Assembly (NCBI GenBank): GCA_031254115.1 | Contig: JAIRUZ010000031.1 | Span: 1 to 32,296, forward strand | Reading direction: 5' to 3' | From: Streptococcaceae bacterium | Lineage (GTDB): Bacteria; Bacillota; Bacilli; Lactobacillales; Streptococcaceae | DNA: 32,296 nucleotides | Part shown: piece by piece, positions 1-24,508 of the stretch | Layout of the letters: each line of letters begins with the position of its first letter | Numbering within the stretch: the first letter of the stretch is position 1 | The notes under the pieces: model-generated | The model's database searches: none | Told to the model about the DNA's origin: nothing | The model's input: the letters and a program-made list of their open reading frames with translations, nothing else | Made by a program: the position numbers and the translations under genes

Positions 1-1058
1 GTGGATGCAACGAGCGTTTTCTTGATTCCTATTGTGTCAAGTGACGTAAATTTTCCGCGCAACATCGCGAGCAAAAACGCGTACAGCATTGTCAGTGCGC
101 CGCCCGTCGTCAATAGAAATTTCGGCATAAGAAATAAAAGCACAAAAAATGTCGCTGAAAAATTGTCCAGAGTGCGAAACGGCAGACTTTTTTGAACCAA
201 GGCGCGTATCACAGACACTGAAAGTCCAGTCAAAAAGGCGTACACAATGCTAAACGGCAGCATGAGTTGATCGACCCTGTCACGCCGCATGCCCAATCGC
301 AATAAAATTTTGCGCAGCCAATCAATGAAAAAATTGACCTGCATGCCCGATAACGCAAACAGATGAATGATGCCAAGCGAGCTGTAAATATCGCCCATTT
401 CCGCATCAAAATCCTTCGGCAAATAGCCAAATAACAGGCCTGTCAGATAATTTGCCATAGGTTTTGGAAAGCGCGTTTCACACAGCAATATCGCACGCCG
501 GCGCAACACGCGTAAGTCAAGAAAACTTGTTTTCTTGCTGATGCTGCGAACTGTTTTTATCGTGACAACGCGGTAAATACCTTGTGTCGCGAGATATTTT
601 TGATAATCAAAGCCGTTAAAATTACGCACGGATTCTGGCACGTCAAGCGCGCCATCAAATGTGACAGAAACATTGTCGTCAAGATGGCTCCAAAACGCTT
701 GCTCTGATTGACTTTTCAGCGTATAGTACACTTGGAAAATGTGGCCCGAGTTCACGGCACGAAAACTAAGCAAATCGCCGTTTACTTCCACCGTGTCAAG
801 CTGCGGTGTCACTTCCGTGAGCATTTTCGGCTGGTCAGCCATCTGACGATTTTCTTCTGCTTTGACAAAGCCACTAACGCTTGCTACGACGAGCAGCACA
901 GCAAAAATTCCCCAAAATTTTCGCCAGATTGCGAGCAGGCAGCTGACCGCGAAAATGGCAAGCAACGCCCACGAAAAGCGCCAGATTAGAAAATACAAAA
1001 GAACCGACAAATAGGTTGCAAAAATCCACGGAAAACCTCTAAACGCGCGCTTAATCAA
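1..1058 (-). CDS. comEC: ComEC/Rec2 DNA-uptake channel, 5' part (gene continues past the left edge)
   Basis: Polytopic membrane protein that carries single-stranded DNA across the cytoplasmic membrane during natural transformation. About 352 codons are open on the minus strand without a stop. The N-terminus holds hydrophobic segments, followed by a soluble OB-fold-like part (around residues 70-170) and then the competence domain. That domain is recognised from YLTGLLFG and the SLGIIHLFALSGMQV stretch, the family's HLxAxSG signature. No good ATG or GTG exists near the front: a GTG-led frame closes quickly. I therefore place the start at a TTG (1056-1058) that overlaps the comEA stop codon, which implies translational coupling. 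The C-terminal nuclease-like domain lies outside the window. It is the second gene of a comEA-comEC operon. Family identity is secure; the start codon is inferred. Confidence 0.88.
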   Translation of the reverse strand, partial: MIKRAFRGFPWIFATYLSVLLYFLIWRFSWALLAIFAVSCLLAIWRKFWGIFAVLLVVASVSGFVKAEENRQMADQPKMLTEVTPQLDTVEVNGDLLSFRAVNSGHIFQVYYTLKSQSEQAFWSHLDDNVSVTFDGALDVPESVRNFNGFDYQKYLATQGIYRVVTIKTVRSISKKTSFLDLRVLRRRAILLCETRFPKPMANYLTGLLFGYLPKDFDAEMGDIYSSLGIIHLFALSGMQVNFFIDWLRKILLRLGMRRDRVDQLMLPFSIVYAFLTGLSVSVIRALVQKSLPFRTLDNFSATFFVLLFLMPKFLLTTGGALTMLYAFLLAMLRGKFTSLDTIGIKKTLVAS

Positions 1059-1725
1059 CCGTAATGCTGTCTTTCAGCTTCTCGAGCGTTTTATCGCCAA
1101 AACCCGCAACATTGCCCAAATCCTCAACGGTTTTAAAGGCGCCATTTTTCGTGCGATAATCAATAATATCTTGCGCTTTTTTCGCGCCAACGCCGCTGAG
1201 CGTCTGGAGTTCCGTCAAATCGGCCGTGTTAATATTGACCTTGGCGCCAGAAGCGCCCGCTTTTCCAGAGGCGGCTGAATTGCTTGATGCTGCGGAATTT
1301 CCAGCAGCTGGCGCGGTTTCACCAACTTTTGCGACAAAAATCACGTCCTCATCTTTAAGTTTGGCTGCTTGATTAATCGAATGTGCATCAGCCGACGCGC
1401 TCAGCCCGCCCGCAAGCGCAATCACATCAACCACGCGTTTATCAGCGCTAATCGTATAAACGCCTGGTTTTACAACGGCGCCCTCAACGTCCACCGTGAT
1501 TTTGTCTGACGCAGCGCTCGTGGATTTTTTGCTCGAGCTGACAGACGCATGACTGCTGCTTGACGACGTGAGCATGAGTTTGTCAGAGCTGACAGCGTTG
1601 TGCGGCGGCGTACGCAACGCAACAACAAAGTATACGCCGATTAATACCCCGCCGAGCGCGATAAAAAGATGAATCTTTGAAGCAAGCGTTCTGTTTTTCC
1701 AAACAAGTTTGATTTTTTCTAACAT
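1051..1725 (-). CDS. comEA: ComEA, membrane-anchored DNA receptor for competence
   Basis: Binds incoming double-stranded DNA outside the membrane and hands it to the ComEC channel. 224 residues: short cytoplasmic N-terminus, one membrane anchor (about 18-37), a Ser/Lys-rich linker, an SLBB domain (about 75-135), a second Ala/Ser/Gly linker, and a C-terminal double helix-hairpin-helix DNA-binding domain (163-224; VNINTADLTELQTLSGVG then the GFGDKTLEKL hairpin). Size and domain order are normal for the family. A strong AGGAGG precedes the ATG. It is preceded by the rnjB terminator and a cin-box-like promoter, so it heads its own competence transcript with comEC. The linker contains a one-mismatch copy of the iterated palindrome (1581-1594), and the SLBB part carries an ISADK pentapeptide. 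Confidence 0.95.
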   Translation of the reverse strand: MLEKIKLVWKNRTLASKIHLFIALGGVLIGVYFVVALRTPPHNAVSSDKLMLTSSSSSHASVSSSKKSTSAASDKITVDVEGAVVKPGVYTISADKRVVDVIALAGGLSASADAHSINQAAKLKDEDVIFVAKVGETAPAAGNSAASSNSAASGKAGASGAKVNINTADLTELQTLSGVGAKKAQDIIDYRTKNGAFKTVEDLGNVAGFGDKTLEKLKDSITVD

Positions 1726-4378: not shown

Positions 4379-6029
4379 CTGGTAATAACGTCTCCCCAAG
4401 TTTGATATTGTCGCTGTAATCCACTGGCACATGCACCACGACAGGGCCGTCAAGCGCTGTCAGCCCTGACAGAATCGTGCGCAATTCATCAGCCGAATTT
4501 GCCTTAAACCCACGGGCGCCCATTGCCTGCGCGTATTTCACAAAATCAACCGCGCCAAGCTCAACGCCTGCGCTCTTGCCATATTTCATAATTTCCTGAA
4601 ATTCGACCATGTTGTAATGTCCGTCGTCCCAGATAATCTGCACAATCGGCAGCTTCAGGCGCACCGCAACTTCGAGCTCTTGTCCCGTGAAAAGAAAACC
4701 GCCGTCACCCGAATTGGAATACACTTTTCGCCCTGGCCGCAAAAGTGCCGCTGAAATTGCCCACGGCAGCGCCACACCAAGCGTTTGCATGCCGTTTGAA
4801 AACAGCAAATGCCGCGGCTCATAGCTCTTGAAATACCGCGCCATCCAGATATAAAGCGAACCCACGTCAACCGTGACCGTCTCATCATCGTGGACGATTT
4901 CCTGCAAAGCGCCGACAATATCAAGCGGATGCACTTTGCCTTTGTCAGCGCTGACAGGATTTTCGCTCAATTGCGTCAGCTGACGAAGCCCCAGCAAATA
5001 ATCCATCGAGCCTTCTGGCAGCTGATAGCCCATTATTGCTGGCAAAAGAGAGTCAAGCGTCGCCGCAATATCGCCAATCAGCTCGCGCTCAGGCTGATAA
5101 TACGTGTCAATTTCCGCCATCGCGTCATCAATAACAATCACGCGACTATCAATTTCCGCATTCCAGTTGCGCGCCTCGTATTCAATCGGGTCATAACCGA
5201 CCGCAATCACAAGATCTGCGCGCTTTAAAAGCATATCGCCCGGCTGATTTCTGAAAAGGCCAACACGTCCAAAAAATGTGCGCTCAAGATCACGCGAAAT
5301 AACGCCTGCGCCTTGAAAAGTCTCAACCACGGGAATTTTCACCGCCGTAAGCAAGGTGCGCAAACTCTTTGCGACTTTCGCATCTGACGCGCCTGCGCCC
5401 ACCAAAATCACAGGCAACACTGCGTTTTTCACCGCTTGCGCCAGATAATTAATATCATCAATCGATGCATCACCGATTTTCGGCTCAGAGAGCGGTTTGA
5501 TTGCCTTAACACCAACCTCGGCATCTGTCACATCTTGCGGAATCGATACGAAACTCGCGCCACCTTTGCCCGATTTCGCAATGCGCCACGCATTCGCAAG
5601 CGTTTCTGATAGCGTTTCTGCCGCTTCAATTTCGACTGAATATTTGCTAATCGGCGCCATCAGCGCCGCATTATTCATCGACTGATGCGCACGTTTGAGC
5701 AAATCCGCACGTTTGACTTGCCCGCCAATCGCGAGCACCGCGTCACCCTCAGCCGTTGCCGTCAAAAGTCCCGTCGCGAGATTGGACACACCGGGCCCGC
5801 TCGTCGCAATCACAACCCCAGGCTCGCCCGTAAGACGCGCAACACCTTGCGCCATAAAGCTCGCCCCTTGTTCATGGCGCGTAACGACAAGCTGTGGCGC
5901 CGCGTCGTCATGCTCCAAGCGCTCAAACACGCGGTCAATCTTCGCCCCCGGCACGCCAAACACCACAGGCACCCCGTGATTGATCAGTGAATCCACAATC
6001 AAATCACTTCCGAATTTTTTCTCTGCCAT
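4365..6029 (-). CDS. alsS: Catabolic alpha-acetolactate synthase
   Basis: Thiamine-diphosphate enzyme that condenses two pyruvates to alpha-acetolactate. From ATG 6029 (AAAGGA upstream) it is 554 residues, the length of the L. lactis catabolic enzyme. A TTG 21 bp further upstream is in frame but its site is weaker. Visible motifs are the catalytic glutamate in TRHEQGASF (E53) and the ThDP/Mg signature from GDGGFLF (441) to N473. Family members of this type lack FAD and the regulatory subunit, and no ilvN-like gene is nearby. It begins 17 bp after uvrB and overlaps alsD, so all three probably share transcripts. The exact palindrome at 4943-4956 encodes PVSADK in the linker before the C-terminal ThDP domain. 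Confidence 0.95.
   Translation of the reverse strand: MAEKKFGSDLIVDSLINHGVPVVFGVPGAKIDRVFERLEHDDAAPQLVVTRHEQGASFMAQGVARLTGEPGVVIATSGPGVSNLATGLLTATAEGDAVLAIGGQVKRADLLKRAHQSMNNAALMAPISKYSVEIEAAETLSETLANAWRIAKSGKGGASFVSIPQDVTDAEVGVKAIKPLSEPKIGDASIDDINYLAQAVKNAVLPVILVGAGASDAKVAKSLRTLLTAVKIPVVETFQGAGVISRDLERTFFGRVGLFRNQPGDMLLKRADLVIAVGYDPIEYEARNWNAEIDSRVIVIDDAMAEIDTYYQPERELIGDIAATLDSLLPAIMGYQLPEGSMDYLLGLRQLTQLSENPVSADKGKVHPLDIVGALQEIVHDDETVTVDVGSLYIWMARYFKSYEPRHLLFSNGMQTLGVALPWAISAALLRPGRKVYSNSGDGGFLFTGQELEVAVRLKLPIVQIIWDDGHYNMVEFQEIMKYGKSAGVELGAVDFVKYAQAMGARGFKANSADELRTILSGLTALDGPVVVHVPVDYSDNIKLGETLLPDEFY
4943..4956. repeat. Iterated palindrome, exact copy (in alsS)
   Basis: TGTCAGCGCTGACA, read as VSADK. 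Confidence 0.95.
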
Positions 6030-9087: not shown

Positions 9088-9963
9088 TTATTTTAAGGGG
9101 AGCAGCGCGTCTGACAAACGCGCAAATTCTTGCAGCGTCAAGCTTTCGGCGCGTCTGACAGGCTCGATTTCGGCTTCTGTCAGCGCTGACAGAAGTTTTT
9201 CTTTGTTTTCAGCGCCAAATGCCAGCTGAAAATTGTTCAAAAGAGTCTTGCGGCGGTGTGCAAATGCGACTTTCACGACATGAAAAAACCACACGTCATC
9301 AGAAACCGCGACTGCTGGTTGCGCGAGACGCGTCATTTTCAAAATCGCTGAATCTACGCGAGGCGCTGGCACGAAAACCGTGCGTGGCACGTTGAAAGCA
9401 AGCTCGACCGTCATGTAATACTGCACGGCAATTGACAGCGCGCCGTAAACTTTCGTGTTTGGCCTAGCCGCAATGCGCTCTGCGACCTCTTTTTGCATCA
9501 TCACAACAAACGCGGCAAATGGCACCCCACTCTCAATCAGGTGCATCAAAATCGGCGTCGTGATATAATACGGCAAATTTGCAACAACTTTGAGCGGCAA
9601 CTCGGGATTTTTGAACTTTTTTACATAATCCGCGAGAGCAATTTTCAAAATATCGGCGTGCACGAGTTGAAAATTCGGATAGGGCGCGAGCGTTTCGCGG
9701 AGAATCGGCACGAGCGTGCCGTCAATCTCAAACGCCATGACTTCCGCCGCGTCACCCAGCAAATACTCAGTCAACGAGCCAATGCCGGGTCCGATTTCAA
9801 GCACATTTGCGCCTGTAATGTCGGCGGCTGTGACGATTTTCCTGAGAATATTTGCGTCGGTCAAAAAATTTTGCCCAAACTTTTTCTTGAACGTGAAGTC
9901 GTGCTTGCGCAAAATTTCCTGTGTGCGCACGATCGTGCTAATTCGCTCCAAATTTTCTGTCAT
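9088..9963 (-). CDS. rsmA: 16S rRNA dimethyladenosine transferase RsmA (KsgA)
   Basis: Dimethylates two adjacent adenines near the 3' end of 16S rRNA late in small-subunit assembly. 291 residues: KKFGQNFL (27-34), the SAM-binding loop [11 protein letters not shown] (55-65) and the catalytic NLPY motif (129-132) are intact, followed by the C-terminal helical domain. No Shine-Dalgarno precedes the ATG. Instead a TGATATACT box ends six bases before it, predicting a leaderless mRNA. The TGA of that box is also the dapE stop codon. The exact palindrome at 9178-9191 encodes LLSALTE in the helical domain, without lengthening the protein. Confidence 0.96.
9178..9191. repeat. Iterated palindrome, exact copy (in rsmA)
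   Basis: TGTCAGCGCTGACA with C/G flanks extending it to a 16-bp palindrome; read as LSALTE. Confidence 0.95.
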
Positions 9964-9978: not shown

Positions 9979-11103
9979 GATTTTGTCAGCGCTGACAAGG
10001 TGGCCGTAAGCCGCGAGAAACTCTGTCAGCTGCGCGACGTGACGATTCAGATTTTCTGTCAGCGCAAATTCATTCGTTTTGTGAGCTTGCGCGTCGGCGC
10101 CAGGTCCGTAAATAACGGTCGGAACGCCAATGGCCTCAAAAAAGCCTTGGTCGTTTGAGCCCTGGCTGACAGACAGTTCTGCGACACCCGTCACTTCTTG
10201 GAGGTGCTTGATAAACCCGGCGTCGCCGTCTGTGAGCGTTGCAAGGACTGGCGTTGCTACATCTTTGTAATCAAAGTCGAAGTCAGCTGCCAATTTTCCT
10301 ATAAAGCTATCAAACACGGCTTCAAACGCTGGATTTGTTCTGAAATCGACAATCAGCGTGGCTTTGTCAGCCGTTTTATTGGGCGTTTCAGGATTGCCCG
10401 ACTCAATAGACGTCGGCACCATCGTTGGCAAGCCGAGCGCTGCATCGTCGTAAGCAGTCAATTTTTTCGTTATCTCATCAAGTGCCGCGAGAAATTTTTC
10501 AGCTTTTGCAAGCGCGCTCACCGCGTAATGCGCCTGCACTGACGCATGTCCCGCCGTCCCGTGAAAAATGAAAGTCATAAAATGGCTGCCGCGCTGCCCG
10601 ATTTTAATCTGGCTGAGATCGGTCGGTTCAGAAATCACGCAAACGGTCGCGTCATACGCCGTATTTTCGTCAAACCAAGCGGCAAAATTCGCCGAGCCTT
10701 GCCCGTCGAGCTCTTCATTTGCCGTGCCCGCGACCCACACGTCAAACGGAAGTTCCTCGTGTGAAAGAGAAGCTGCCGCGCTCAAATTGCCAGCGACACC
10801 TGCTTTCATATCGGAAATGCCGAGCCCGACAATTCTATCAGCGCTGACAACAGGCTCCCACGGACTTTGCGCCCAGTCGGCGCGATTACCGGCTGACACC
10901 GTGTCAATATGCCCCGAAAGAATCACCGCCTGCGAATGCGCCGAACCAGCGATTTTCCCAGCAACAAATGTGTCAGTTTTGACAATTGCTGCAAATTTTT
11001 TCTCTTGCATCCATGACGCAAGAAATACCAAAATCGCTTCCTCGTCTCCCGAAACCGACGGAATACTGACTAATTTCGCCGCTAAATCCACAACTTCGCT
11101 CAT
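9976..11103 (-). CDS. M20-family dinuclear zinc peptidase, DapE/ArgE-like deacylase
   Basis: 375 residues of the ArgE/DapE/ACY1/CPG2 family, closest in pattern to the DapE-like proteins of lactic acid bacteria (succinyl-diaminopimelate desuccinylase). The zinc ligands and catalytic pair are present: H65 and D67 in SGHIDTV, D98 in GISDMKAG, E130-E131 in ANEELDG, E159 in ISEPTD, and a final His in the AQAHKTNE stretch. A GGGAG lies upstream of the ATG, with a TATAAT further up. The last residues, GHLVSADKI, are encoded by an exact palindrome copy placed directly before the stop codon. Whether the substrate is the lysine-pathway intermediate or a dipeptide cannot be told. Confidence 0.82.
   Translation of the reverse strand: MSEVVDLAAKLVSIPSVSGDEEAILVFLASWMQEKKFAAIVKTDTFVAGKIAGSAHSQAVILSGHIDTVSAGNRADWAQSPWEPVVSADRIVGLGISDMKAGVAGNLSAAASLSHEELPFDVWVAGTANEELDGQGSANFAAWFDENTAYDATVCVISEPTDLSQIKIGQRGSHFMTFIFHGTAGHASVQAHYAVSALAKAEKFLAALDEITKKLTAYDDAALGLPTMVPTSIESGNPETPNKTADKATLIVDFRTNPAFEAVFDSFIGKLAADFDFDYKDVATPVLATLTDGDAGFIKHLQEVTGVAELSVSQGSNDQGFFEAIGVPTVIYGPGADAQAHKTNEFALTENLNRHVAQLTEFLAAYGHLVSADKI
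9984..9997. repeat. Iterated palindrome, exact copy (3' end of DapE-like gene)
   Basis: TGTCAGCGCTGACA with T/A flanks extending it to 16 bp; encodes VSADK, the last residues but one before the stop codon. Confidence 0.95.
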
Positions 11104-12663: not shown

Positions 12664-15419
<2,756 letters not shown>

Positions 15420-19502: not shown

Positions 19503-19511
19503 ATTATACCA
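19503..19511 (-). promoter_or_regulatory. Extended -10 promoter of murC, six bases before ATG
   Basis: Minus strand TGGTATAAT, spacer GTCACT, ATG. No -35 match; the intergenic palindrome copy lies 33 bp further upstream. Confidence 0.68.
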
Positions 19512-19544
19512 TATCTCATAACTTAGCCATCAGTTAGAACTTTC

Positions 19545-19558
19545 TGTCAGCGCTGACA
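19545..19558. repeat. Iterated palindrome, exact copy (intergenic)
   Basis: The only exact copy outside a gene, between the terminator of the unknown 223-aa gene and the murC promoter. Confidence 0.95.
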
Positions 19559-19573
19559 AACTCGCGCGCAAAC

Positions 19574-19600
19574 AAAAAATCATCGTGTCAGATGATTTTT
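19574..19600 (-). terminator. Terminator after the unknown 223-aa gene
   Basis: Minus strand AAAAATCATC, loop TGACAC, GATGATTTTT plus one more T. It overlaps the stop codon and supports this frame as the real gene. Confidence 0.85.
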
Positions 19601-20310: not shown

Positions 20311-23300
20311 GCGGTGATGCCTAAAATTTCATTAATATCGGCCTGCGTCAGAGTGCTCGTTGTCGTTGTGTTTGTGTCAAGAATTGCTGTGAACAGGTCT
20401 TTTTTGCGTTTTTGAATCTCGATTATCTTTTCTTCAATCGTGCCTTTCGTAATCAAACGCACGACTTCGACACGTTTTTTTTGGCCCATGCGGTGCGCTC
20501 TGGAAATGGCCTGCTCTTCGACGGCCGGATTCCACCAGAGATCAACGAGAATAACCATGTCAGACGAGGTCAAATTGAGCCCTGTGCCGCCCGCTTTTAG
20601 GCTGATCAAGAAAACGTCACGACTGCCCGCATTGAACGCGCGTACACGCTCAACGCGCTCGCTTGACGGTGTCGAGCCTGTCAGCTTGTAGAAACTCAAG
20701 CCGTGTTTGTCAAGCAATTTTTCGATGTGCGGAAACATGGAGGTAAATTGGCTGAAAATCAGCGGCCGGCGCCCAGAGTCTTTGATTTGTGCGAGAAGCG
20801 CATCAAGCGTTTCAAGCTTGCCAGACGTGTCGTTGTAATCGTCAAGGAAAAGCGCTGGTGTGTCGCAAATCTGGCGCAAACGCGTGATGCCCGCAAGAAT
20901 TTCAAGCCGATTTCGCGAAAAGTCGCTCGCTGACAAATGCGAAAATTTTTGTTTCATTTGCTCAAGTTGCGCAAGATAAACGAGTTTCTGCGATTCTGTC
21001 AGCTCTGACAAATGCGTCATTTCAAGCTTATCTGGCAATTCGGTGAGCACGTCTTCTTTTTTGCGGCGCAAAACAAACGGCCGAATGGTGCGAAAAACCT
21101 CACTTGGCAGCATTTTGTTGAACGCTTTTCGCGCGGGCAAAAGTCCTGGCATCAGAAGATTGAAAATGGCCCAGAGTTCGTCAATTTTGTTTTCGATTGG
21201 CGTGCCTGAAAGAGCAAAAACATGCGCAGCTGTTAGCGCTGACAAGGCTTTGTTGGTCTTTGAATTGAAATTTTTGACGACTTGCGCCTCATCAAGAAAA
21301 AGATACGTCAAATTTTTCGCCTCGTAATCCGCCGCTTCTTTCAGGAAGCTGCCATAGCTCGTGATATAGACTTGGTGGGCTTCTGCGAGCTTTTCGTCAC
21401 GCTCATCTTTGCTACCGTCAACCGTCACCACATCAAGCGCACCTGGCGCAAATTTGCTAAATTCCGCGAGCCAATTGTACACAAGACTTGACGGCGCAAC
21501 AATCAGCGCGCAATCAGATGTTTCAGACGTTGTCAGCGCTGACAAAAGATACGTGATGGCCTGCAACGTCTTGCCAAGCCCCATATCGTCCGCGAGAATA
21601 CCCGACATATTGTAATGCGCAAGCATCTTCATCCAGCGAACGCCTGTCAGCTGATAATCGCGCAGCGTCGCATCGAGCGTTTCTGGCAGCGTCACAGGAA
21701 ATTCTTCTGGGTGCGTCAAATCATAAAATAGAGTCTCAAAACGCTTGTTAAACGAGGTTTTAGGCACATTTTCAAACAAGCTTGACAAAGCAAACGCGCG
21801 GTAGCTTTCTGTCATCAAATGATTGCCTGAAATTTTAAGATCGTCAGACGTCTCAAGCGCGCTTTTGAGTGGCTCAAAGCGCTGATCCAGCTTCAAATAA
21901 TTGCCGTCAGCCGTCACAATATGCCTAGCACCCTTTGTCAGCGCTGACAAAATCCGCGAAAACTCACTGTCAGCCACGTTTGGCAGGCTAAACGAAATAT
22001 CAAGCAAACTGCCTTCTAAACTGACCGAAATCTCAGGCTCGGCCGTGATGTCCTGAGCCTCTAGCGCCTCGTCAAGACTGAGCACTCCGAGCGTCTCAAG
22101 CTGCGGCAAAAAATGCTCGTAAAAGCTGTAAAATTCGTCTGGCAGCAAACGCGCGCGCGCGCTTTCAAAGCCTTCTGGGAAGCCCATTTGCGCCGTCGTC
22201 TCAAAGATTTTCTTTTCAAGACGCAAATCTCTCGAAAACTCCAGTGTTTCAAGCTCCTGAAAGCTCGAAATTTCAAAATCGCCATAATCAAACGACATTT
22301 TGAGCACGAGCTGATTTTCCGTGAGCGAAAGACTGAATGCTGGACGAAATGAGCGAATCTGAAACGCCGGCGGCACGTTCACTTCTCCCAAATCCGTAAA
22401 CAGCTGCATCGCCTGCGCGAGCGCATCCTTGTCATCATACGACAGCGAAAGGCGACTCGAAAGTCCTTTTTCGCTCGAAACATGTGGTAAAACCTGTCTT
22501 AGCCGTGTTATCAAGGCATGTTGCTTCTCAGAAACGACGTAAAATGTTTGACCTGCGATGACCAAACGCCCGTCATACAGCATAAATTCGTGATTTTCGC
22601 GCACGTCCAGCAAAATCTCATCATCCTGCGGTTTCACGCTCAGAGAAAATAAATTTGCCTCGGCACTAAGCGGCACAAATGCCCAATAATTCAGCTTTTT
22701 CATGTCAATTGTCACGCTGAAATCTTCGAGCGACGCAATCAAATCCAAAAATTCTTCTACAAAAATGTAGGGCAAAACAAGATAGCGGCCTGATTTTTGA
22801 TAAAAATTTTGAGTGGCCATCAAAAACGACTCTTGCTGCCAGCTGATTAATTTCTCAAGAAGATGCGCGCTTGCGTCGTCAAAATTTGCGAGCGACATCG
22901 GCGAGAAATAAAGTTGTCCCGTGCTGTACGAATCGCCGCCCGCAACAGCTTTCAGAAACGCTGGAATATCGCGCACCACGTAGCTTCTGGGCATTTTTTC
23001 CTTGCGAATGCGCAAGGTGACCGCCAAAAAATCCGCGAGCGCCTGAAAATCTTCTGAGCTGCTCGCATTGAAAACCTCGACGTCAAGCGTGTAGAACTGC
23101 TTGTCATCAGCCTCTAGGTCTTCATTCATGCGCGCAAGAAATGTGCGGCCGACCTCAAATTCCGCATTTTGCGCGCGTTTCGTTTCCGCGCGCTCAACAA
23201 CCGCCACGACTTTTTCCTGCTGAGCTTTCTCTTTTTTCAGATATTCTTCAACGGCCGCGAGGTGCGCGCAATAGCGGTGATTTGCCTGAAAAGTCGCACA

Positions 23301-23578: not shown

Positions 23579-24508
23579 AAATTGCTCGATGAGCGCGTCG
23601 CGCTTTAAAATCCAGTCTGCGCGCGCGTCTTTTAGATGTACACGATTGGAGAGAAAAATGACGGCCTGCTTGGTTTGCAGATTGAGCAGAATAAAAGTGC
23701 CCGTGTAGCCTGTGTGGCAGAGCCATTTTCCGTCGCCGCGTGTCGCCCAAGCAAGCGGACGACCGTCTGTGAGCTGTGCGTATAGCTGTAGGTAATTTTC
23801 ATCCGCCAAATAATGGCGGACAAATTCTGTCAGCGCTGACAACGTGCCAAAAAGCCCGGCAGAGCCGCAATGCGTACCCAGCACGCGCGCTTTCGGATCG
23901 TGAACAACGCCCGCAGGCACGTCAGTCGCCGTTGGAACGGCTTTGTCAGCCGCAATTGGCCCGTAGCCAAGACCTGTCAGCGCCCATTTTTCAAAAATGC
24001 GCGCATTTATAATGTCAGCTACCGACTGATGAAACTGCACTTCGAGCATAAAACCCAGCAAAATAAAATTCACATCTGAGTAATTAAATGTTTTGTCAAG
24101 GCTGACAGATAGCTGATTCATGGCTTTCGTCAGCTCGCGCGCCGTCATTTGGTTCCGATTTTTGATAAACGGGTCAATGCCCGACGTGTGCGTCAAAAGC
24201 GCACGAATCGTGACCGTTTCTTCGTGCCATGCGGGATACAGACTTTTTAGCGGCGCGTCGATATCCAAATTCCCCGAAAGCCAGAGGTCAATGCACGCCG
24301 TCCCTGCGCCAATGACTTTTGTAAGCGACGCCAGATCCCACCAAAGCCCTGGTTCAAGCGGTTTTTCGTGCGGCAAAATCTGCCGATTGCCCAAGCAAAA
24401 ACGACGCACCTCGCTAGAAAAGGGCGCGCCGTCAATCACCGCAAATTCGCAACCTGGAAAAACTTCCTGCTGGATAAGCGCGTCAATAGTTGCTAAAATT
24501 TCCTTCAT
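23549..24508 (-). CDS. Serine hydrolase of the class C beta-lactamase / DD-peptidase family
   Basis: 319 residues. The serine beta-lactamase-fold triad is visible: SLTK (S61, K64), Y143 in the YSDVNF motif, and HTG at 265-267 in place of KTG, as in many class C-like esterases. There is no signal peptide, so a cytoplasmic esterase or peptidase role is as likely as penicillin binding. The ATG overlaps the stop of the CppA-like gene (ATGA), indicating an operon. An exact palindrome (23828-23841) encodes TLSALTEF, and further half-sites lie in the same gene. Confidence 0.87.
   Translation of the reverse strand: MKEILATIDALIQQEVFPGCEFAVIDGAPFSSEVRRFCLGNRQILPHEKPLEPGLWWDLASLTKVIGAGTACIDLWLSGNLDIDAPLKSLYPAWHEETVTIRALLTHTSGIDPFIKNRNQMTARELTKAMNQLSVSLDKTFNYSDVNFILLGFMLEVQFHQSVADIINARIFEKWALTGLGYGPIAADKAVPTATDVPAGVVHDPKARVLGTHCGSAGLFGTLSALTEFVRHYLADENYLQLYAQLTDGRPLAWATRGDGKWLCHTGYTGTFILLNLQTKQAVIFLSNRVHLKDARADWILKRDALIEQFITFFAHEKK
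23828..23841. repeat. Iterated palindrome, exact copy (in serine hydrolase)
   Basis: TGTCAGCGCTGACA, read as LSALTE. Confidence 0.95.

What the first reader, a model, noticed from the sequence alone, without database searches (positions are those of the whole stretch)
19509..19574. An exact palindrome copy in the intergenic region upstream of murC
Outside codon constraint the full 14-mer is still kept, between a terminator and the murC extended -10. This argues that the DNA sequence, not the peptide, is what is maintained. Its centre is about 45 bp upstream of the -10, so a repressor or activator site for murC is an alternative.
Basis: partly seen in the sequence, partly recalled or inferred. 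Interest (0 to 1): 0.5.

Follow-up and report, generated by a model that had tools for sequence, protein, structure and literature searches.

The report
Genome-wide palindromic tag with species dialects
A 16-letter palindrome recurs hundreds of times across the chromosomes of some lactic acid bacteria, mostly inside genes, with a centre that differs by species; it may be a self-recognition tag for taking up DNA, a kind of signal best known from two families of Gram-negative bacteria.

Summary
The copy upstream of murC is real: TGTCAGCGCTGACA at 19545-19558. It is not a murC operator but one of 7 exact copies in the window and 327 in the 1.42-Mb genome, against 0 for the reversed control. The full motif is YTGTCA-RNNY-TGACAR: the arms are fixed, the centre is a species dialect (GCGC here, AATT in a same-genus MAG, GTAC/GCAC in several Lactococcus). 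It occurs 315-700 times in six genomes, 0-76 times in 17 other Lactovum/Lactococcus, 0-9 elsewhere in the family and 0-3 in the other Lactobacillales sampled. In the three genomes read, 70-85% of sites lie in genes. Places are partly shared between species while the centre follows the dialect, and sites arise by substitution. A prophage stretch and plasmid stretches have none. Best explanation: a DNA-uptake-sequence-like tag spread by biased uptake and recombination. All 20 of 23 genomes with any site have ComEC; the two genomes without ComEC have none. There is no uptake assay and no known receptor, motif-poor species also have com genes, and a chromosomal DNA-binding protein or adenine methylase is not excluded. 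Unlike known uptake sequences, it is palindromic.

The parts
19544..19559 (.). the copy in question: CTGTCAGCGCTGACAA between murC and the ORF upstream of it
1580..1595 (.). motif TTGTCAGAGCTGACAG in the linker part of comEA; comEA carries at least one motif in all six motif-rich genomes read
4457..4472 (.). motif, centre GCCC, in a TPP-enzyme gene
4942..4957 (.). motif, centre GCGC, in the same TPP-enzyme gene
9177..9192 (.). motif, centre GCGC, in a ksgA-like gene (RrnaAD)
9983..9998 (.). motif, centre GCGC, in an M20 peptidase gene
14187..14202 (.). motif, centre GGTC, in a Cys/Met metabolism enzyme gene
20996..21011 (.). motif, centre GCTC, in the SNF2-helicase gene
21530..21545 (.). motif, centre GCGC, in the SNF2-helicase gene; G019 has TGTCAAATTTGACA at the aligned place
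21935..21950 (.). motif, centre GCGC, in the SNF2-helicase gene; not shared with G019
23827..23842 (.). motif, centre GCGC, in a beta-lactamase-family gene; G019 has TGTCAGATTTGACA there
24093..24108 (.). motif, centre AGGC, in the same gene; G019 has TGTCAAATCTGACA there
19575..19600 (-). hairpin (10-bp arms, 6-nt loop, T run) between the upstream ORF and the murC-proximal copy, terminator-like
   Evidence: not called by the consensus scan
1051..1725 (-). comEA (SLBB + helix-hairpin-helix), DNA receptor of the competence machinery
45..416 (-). part of comEC at the contig end (a weaker second match, below the family cut-off, lies at C8:5-295)

Best explanation
The palindrome is a genome-wide DNA tag that works like a DNA uptake sequence. 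Some part of the competence machinery, or a DNA-binding protein that feeds it, would prefer double-stranded DNA carrying YTGTCA-RNNY-TGACAR. Preferred uptake of tagged DNA, followed by homologous recombination, would then convert near-matches into tags wherever the protein or the space between genes tolerates it. The centre changes when the receptor's taste changes, giving species dialects. Shown here: the motif, its numbers, dialects, origin by substitution, partly shared positions, graded near-matches, absence from one prophage stretch and two plasmid-type stretches, and presence of competence genes. Inferred: that a receptor exists, that uptake is the driver, and that the receptor belongs to the Com system.
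For: Numbers: 327 exact copies against 0 reversed. The general motif occurs 434, 315, 700, 481, 408 and 381 times in G000, G019, G061, G045, G059 and G063. Graded excess of near-matches in three genomes; in G000 0/1/2/3/4 mismatches give 55/53/31/55/199 against 0/0/1/15/99 expected. Single half-sites are also in excess: CTGTCAG 1.40/kb in G000 against 0.075 reversed, and 0.074 against 0.072 in L. miscens. Dialects with fixed arms. 7 of 26 aligned G000 coding sites have TGTCAN4TGACA at the same place in G019, with 0 hits at five shifted control places each; 5 of the 7 carry the G019-type centre. Over all 29 directed pairs of the six motif-rich genomes it is 54 of 170, with 6 control hits in five shifts each (sums by hand; shared sites count in both directions). 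0 of 38 sites aligned to L. miscens (6 with a gap) and 0 of 49 aligned to G057, L. termiticola, L. cremoris and L. petauri have it there, so sites arise by substitution. No orientation bias of single half-sites, 109:109, and by eye no ori/ter trend. None in a 20-kb prophage stretch of G045 against 17 in three other 20-kb stretches of that contig. None in 28.3 kb of G063 plasmid-type contigs against 70 in 400 kb of chromosome. ComEC is matched in 21 of the 23 Lactovum/Lactococcus genomes of the draw; the two without it have 0 sites. L. miscens also lacks ComEA and a ComGA-grade ATPase. comEA carries a motif in 6 of 6 motif-rich genomes and 0 of 9 others, where overall density predicts about 0.1-0.2 per gene. 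Several intergenic copies are terminator-like hairpins, as passages of PMC12616744 describe for uptake sequences.
Against: No uptake or transformation data. Competence genes are also present in motif-poor species (G057 with 0 sites; G039, G042, G065 and G036 with 1-4), so they do not predict the motif. One of the two ComEC-less genomes, G069, is 71% complete, and L. miscens is one event; two ComEC matches lie in short frames (G036 386 aa, G048 473 aa). Known uptake sequences are not palindromes and only about 10% occur as inverted repeats (PMC1939737, passages). In G061, the richest genome, no pilin genes follow comGB in the 10-kb stretch held. One 20-kb stretch of ordinary G063 genes also has 0 sites, and single half-sites are not absent from the G063 plasmid stretch, 18 against 8 reversed. 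Places are rarely shared between the two genera. A near-palindromic 16-mer looks like a target of a dimeric protein, and I know of no Com protein that binds DNA that way (recalled).
Confidence: 0.5

Rival explanations
1. The sites are targets of an abundant dimeric chromosomal DNA-binding protein (nucleoid organiser or nucleoid-occlusion-like factor). Selection keeps hundreds of sites, and the protein's specificity drifted between species.
For: Near-perfect two-fold symmetry, fixed half-site YTGTCAR with 2-bp spacer, and a 4-bp spacer class in G063; sites occur in pairs less than 100 bp apart in G019, 13 of 69 against 1.5 expected.
Against: No origin-terminus pattern by eye in 20 evenly spaced G063 stretches. 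Most positions are not shared between related species (19 of 26 G000 sites aligned to G019). Drift of specificity would have to rebuild hundreds of sites by selection alone. No such protein was identified here.
Confidence: 0.25
2. It is a highly iterated palindrome of the cyanobacterial HIP1 type, created by methylation-directed mismatch repair around a methylase site.
For: Palindromic, made by substitution, mostly in genes, alternative sequences in related genomes; PMC4390886 describes a highly iterated palindrome replaced by alternate HIPs in some genomes (abstract and section 3.4 part 1).
Against: The arms are fixed and the centre varies, with non-palindromic centres common (AATC 22 of 89 in G019, GCAC 30 of 70 in G063), which a short methylase site does not explain. 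C5 methylases (PF00145) are not found in G045 (481 sites, 99% complete) or G000 (76% complete) and are found in G057 (0 sites); 10 of 16 genomes have a match. Adenine methylases were not tested.
Confidence: 0.15
3. A regulatory operator: a repressor or activator site for murC, or a catabolite (cre-like) site.
For: The copy lies 43-48 bp from a TATAAT in front of murC. The GCGC dialect fits the loose cre consensus (recalled).
Against: Not conserved upstream of murC. 69 of 81 G000 sites are inside genes and intergenic ones do not favour promoters. The AATT and GTAC dialects lack the central CG of cre (consensus recalled).
Confidence: 0.03
4. Transcription terminators or a small mobile palindrome (REP/MITE-like) explain the family.
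For: Several intergenic copies extend into longer stems with T runs; the 6-base-centre class of G063 is mostly intergenic, 19 of 28.
Against: 70-85% of the 4-base-centre sites are in genes. 32 of 38 aligned L. miscens orthologues, all without the motif, show no gap there, so the copies are not insertions. Flanks beyond one or two bases are not conserved.
Confidence: 0.05

Closest known systems
DNA uptake sequence (DUS) of Neisseriaceae, with its dialects
   Same: Hundreds of short copies in genes and in terminator-like inverted pairs, fixed core with dialect positions, competence genes present
   Different: DUS is not palindromic and a single copy suffices (PMC1939737 and PMC12616744, passages); here the near-abutting inverted pair is the main form; Gram-positive; receptor unknown
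Uptake signal sequence (USS) of Pasteurellaceae
   Same: Graded excess of near-matches, majority in genes (65% in H. influenzae per PMC1939737, passages), two dialects, no orientation bias
   Different: USS is not palindromic; Gram-negative; uptake shown by experiment there, not here
HIP1 (GCGATCGC) of cyanobacteria and alternate HIPs
   Same: Highly iterated palindrome, replaced by another palindrome in some genomes (PMC4390886)
   Different: HIP1 is 8 bp at about one per kb; here 14-16 bp at one per 3-7 kb in the six rich genomes, with fixed arms and variable centre, and no matching C5 methylase in G045
Methylation-dependent uptake of RAATTY-tagged DNA in Campylobacter (recalled)
   Same: A short sequence marks self DNA for transformation
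   Different: Depends on a methylated 6-mer; no evidence on methylation here
Nucleoid-occlusion sites (Noc, SlmA) and MatP sites (recalled)
   Same: 12-16-bp palindromes or near-palindromes spread over the chromosome
   Different: Tens of copies rather than hundreds, arranged by chromosome region; no such arrangement seen here

Membership tests
DNA uptake sequence (DUS/USS) | strongly over-represented short motif spread over the chromosome, in and between genes | tested here: met
DNA uptake sequence (DUS/USS) | graded over-representation of near-matches | tested here: met
   three genomes; in G019 the excess is slight from 4 mismatches on
DNA uptake sequence (DUS/USS) | related species carry dialects with a conserved core | tested here: met
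DNA uptake sequence (DUS/USS) | competence machinery present in motif-bearing genomes | tested here: met
   ComEC matched in all 20 of the 23 drawn genomes that have any site, two of them in short frames; comG pilins of G061 not found in the stretch held
DNA uptake sequence (DUS/USS) | non-palindromic single motif | tested here: not met
   near-perfect palindrome; single half-sites also enriched
DNA uptake sequence (DUS/USS) | motif increases DNA uptake or transformation | not testable with these tools
   needs experiment
DNA uptake sequence (DUS/USS) | sequence-specific receptor (minor pilin) | not tested
   comG operons read without a specific candidate
Highly iterated palindrome (HIP) | highly iterated palindrome made by substitution | tested here: met
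Highly iterated palindrome (HIP) | methylase specific for the palindrome in the genome | tested here: inconclusive
   no C5 methylase match in G045 and G000; adenine methylases not tested
transcription-factor operator at murC | conserved upstream of murC in relatives | tested here: not met
transcription-factor operator at murC | genome copies gathered at promoters | tested here: not met
nucleoid-occlusion / MatP-type sites | uneven distribution between origin and terminus | tested here: not met
   20 stretches of one genome judged by eye, low power
REP / MITE | copies are insertions, mostly extragenic | tested here: not met

The most novel reading that the evidence does not exclude
Lactovum and a branch of Lactococcus carry the first DNA uptake sequences known in Gram-positive bacteria. 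They are palindromic, read by a symmetric receptor, and have split into at least three species dialects (GCGC, AATT, GTAC/GCAC).
Probability: 0.42. Interest if true: 0.9.

Novelty: new variant of a known kind. Interest (0 to 1): 0.72.

Why it matters
If it is an uptake tag, self-recognition of DNA by sequence during transformation would not be confined to Gram-negative bacteria. It would have arisen, with dialects, in lactic acid bacteria, at least one of them a named insect-gut species (Lactococcus allomyrinae) in which the receptor can be sought. If it is instead the target of an unknown DNA-binding protein, hundreds of 16-bp sites whose centre is rewritten from species to species would still be an unusual case of coevolution between a protein and its genome-wide sites. 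Either way, the motif changes protein sequences (LSALT, LSNLT, LSVLT), so it must be allowed for when these genes are analysed.

Tried and rejected
murC operator: no conservation upstream of murC and no promoter clustering. RNA hairpin as the selected form: the bases flanking the arms covary weakly in G000 (Fisher p 0.02) and not in G019 (p 0.65), and compensatory double changes in the arms are few, 2 of 38 and 7 of 49. C5 methylase as common driver. Oriented signal (Chi- or KOPS-like): single half-sites 109:109. Phage or mobile origin: the 16-mer with centre GTAC occurs in 16 IMG/VR stretches, one copy each. Of the 136 viral loci held, none has two or more general motifs; ten have two or more of TGTCAN4TGACA, the densest (L294, four exact 14-mers) in a 65% GC contig with other flanks, so another repeat. 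Phages are therefore not shown to be a reservoir.

Placing L. miscens by pairwise identity of shared proteins did not resolve its position. The ComGA+ComGB tree puts the motif-rich and middle genomes together with Lactovum and five of the six poor genomes apart, but the central split has weak support (54/30). The G063 row holds a wrong ComGA piece (122 aa), so its place rests on a shortened ComGB. I first took the 1050-aa protein for SftA; Pfam shows an SNF2 helicase. That the reading frame with the motif's own TGA is never used inside ORFs is true by construction and is not evidence. Rows dropped before the count: alignments under 40% identity or not spanning the site; a few G019 sites are counted twice because loci overlap (L132 and L169). 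L. cremoris and L. petauri were not counted genome-wide for the motif.

Literature: no paper in the held library contains the GCGC 14-mer. The GTAC and AATT forms had no hits; only shorter fragments appeared, in eight papers seen as a listing and unrelated by title. Searches for uptake sequences with Gram-positive or lactococcal terms (listings) showed nothing on this motif. PMC5031613 (passages) names Pasteurellaceae and Neisseriaceae as the families with sequence-specific uptake. The P. laudensis methylome paper PMC13335696 and the Lactococcus reclassification PMC12281737 were read as passages only; the methylated motifs of the former are in a figure that is not held.

Full report
What was claimed and what is there. 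The window lies in a fragmented bacterial genome (G000, 1.42 Mb, 74 contigs, 76% complete) of the same genus as Lactovum miscens: G001, of that genus, has a first contig of the same length as NZ_JACHHV010000001.1. TGTCAGCGCTGACA is at 19545-19558, between murC and the next ORF. It lies after a terminator-like hairpin and 43-48 bp from a TATAAT on the murC strand. The consensus scan did not call that promoter or the hairpin, so the promoter remains a guess. The window has 7 exact copies, 9 with one mismatch and 25 with up to three, where shuffles give 1.7. The genome has 327 exact copies and 545 with up to one mismatch; the reversed control gives 0 and 1.

Anatomy. In the 279 kb of G000 that I read, a pyrimidine almost always precedes and a purine follows the exact 14-mer, and the next position out is rarely A on the left. 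The motif is YTGTCA-RNNY-TGACAR, a half-site YTGTCAR repeated inverted with two bases between. The centre in G000 is mostly GCGC (55 of 94 TGTCAN4TGACA), then GAGC, GCCC, GACC and GCAC. In G019 it is AATT (54 of 89) or AATC/GATT (22). In G063 it is GCAC (30) or GTAC (28) of 70. G063 also has a class with two more central bases (28 sites, CTGTCAGTATACTGACAG type). Single half-sites are in excess as well.

Distribution among bacteria. Of 196 family genomes drawn, 23 belong to the window's genus (5) and to genus g8 (18). In g8 it occurs 700 (G061), 481 (G045), 408 (G059), 381 (G063), 76 (G054), 42 (G030), 41 (G067) and 0-28 times in the other 11 genomes. The remaining genomes of the family have 0-9, and the other Lactobacillales drawn 0-3.

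Position in genomes. Sites in ORFs: 69 of 81 (G000), 60 of 86 (G019), 50 of 70 (G063), in both frames that avoid the motif's own TGA. Density between genes is about two to three and a half times that in genes (from; my ORF caller is crude). Intergenic copies are not gathered at promoters, and several look like bidirectional terminators. I saw no origin-terminus trend in 20 stretches of G063 and no strand bias of single half-sites, 109:109.

How sites arise and change. Of 26 G000 coding sites that could be aligned to G019 orthologues, 7 have TGTCAN4TGACA at the same place, and none of the shifted control places does. At the four of these where G000 has the exact GCGC palindrome (window 21531 and 23828, L102:328, L110:9502), G019 has AATT or GATT, changing LSALT to LSNLT or LSDLT. 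At one of the seven G019 itself has GCGC, and at another GCTC. Over all directed pairs of six motif-rich genomes 54 of 170 aligned sites are shared, with 6 control hits; sharing between the two genera is rare. None of 38 sites aligned to L. miscens, and none of 49 aligned to G057, L. termiticola, L. cremoris and L. petauri, have the motif. Only 6 of the 38 alignments have a gap at the place. So sites are made and lost by substitution, some places persist, and the centre mostly follows the species.

Where sites are missing. A 20-kb stretch of G045 with Erf, terminase, portal, head and tail genes has none, while three other 20-kb stretches of that contig have 6, 6 and 5. In G063, 20 kb of the 54.9-kb plasmid and the whole 8.3-kb contig C3 (presumably a plasmid) have none, where chromosomal density predicts about 5. 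Against this, one 20-kb stretch of ordinary G063 genes also has none, and half-sites in the plasmid stretch are 18 against 8 reversed.

Competence. ComEC (PF03772) is matched in 21 of the 23 genomes. It is missing from L. miscens (99% complete) and G069 (71% complete), both with 0 sites; one genome with ComEC, G057, also has 0. The matches in G036 and G048 lie in short frames (386 and 473 aa). L. miscens also lacks ComEA: its best match is a 56-residue stretch in a 751-aa frame. It also lacks a ComGA-grade match: best E 4e-21, against 8e-49 or better in the other 15 genomes tested. comEA lies in this window (1051-1725) and carries a motif; so does comEA of the five other motif-rich genomes, each in its own dialect or a variant, and none of the nine other comEA genes read has one. 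In G061 no pilin genes follow comGB in the 10-kb stretch held.

Interpretation. A recurring palindrome with fixed arms, interchangeable centre, graded near-matches, origin by substitution, shared places and absence from recently acquired DNA is what biased DNA uptake plus recombination would leave behind. PMC1939737 (passages) describes this molecular drive for uptake sequences. PMC12616744 (passages) describes dialects with a conserved core and a second role in terminators. The joint absence of motif and competence genes in L. miscens fits. What does not fit is the symmetry, because known uptake sequences are not palindromes. A chromosomal dimeric protein would explain the symmetry but not the lack of regional pattern or the turnover of sites. 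A HIP-type origin is weakened by variable, often non-palindromic centres and by the absence of a C5 methylase match from G045; adenine methylases were not tested.

Verdict. I file the feature as working like a DNA uptake sequence, not as a proven member: one textbook feature (non-palindromic unit) is not met and the functional one is untestable here. My searches of the held library showed no report of it.

Noticed in passing
L167:8200-8310, L168:11740-11880, L170:9018-9077 (G019): Sites in G019 occur in close pairs or triplets: 13 of 69 neighbour distances under 100 bp where about 1.5 are expected.
   Followed up: no
L172, L185, L188 and other G063 stretches: A second spacing class (CTGTCAG-NNNN-CTGACAG, often TATA in the middle) occurs 28 times in 400 kb, 19 of them between genes, several terminator-like.
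   Followed up: partly
window 1580-1595 and L346-L348, L351, L352: comEA carries the motif in all six motif-rich genomes (twice in G061 and G045), far more than density predicts for a 0.6-kb gene.
   Followed up: partly
L193:6416-9621 (G061): Nine motif copies lie within about 3 kb in G061, five with centre GCGC rather than the species' usual GTAC, most spaced by multiples of 3.
   Followed up: no
L401 (G061:C7): In the genome richest in the motif, comGA and comGB are followed by non-pilin ORFs including an HTH protein, so the comG operon may be interrupted.
   Followed up: partly
L017:2800-3003: L. cremoris has inverted CTGTCAG...CTGACAG arms with a longer loop just upstream of murC, half-sites like those of the motif; this species was not counted genome-wide.
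   Followed up: no
G002 and G012 (genus g2): Five and four copies of TTGTCAAAATTGACAG in two genomes of another genus, perhaps a separate small repeat.
   Followed up: no
L294:519-5278: Four exact TGTCAGCGCTGACA copies with GC-rich shared flanks in one 5.6-kb, 65% GC contig of the viral collection, apparently another repeat family.
   Followed up: partly
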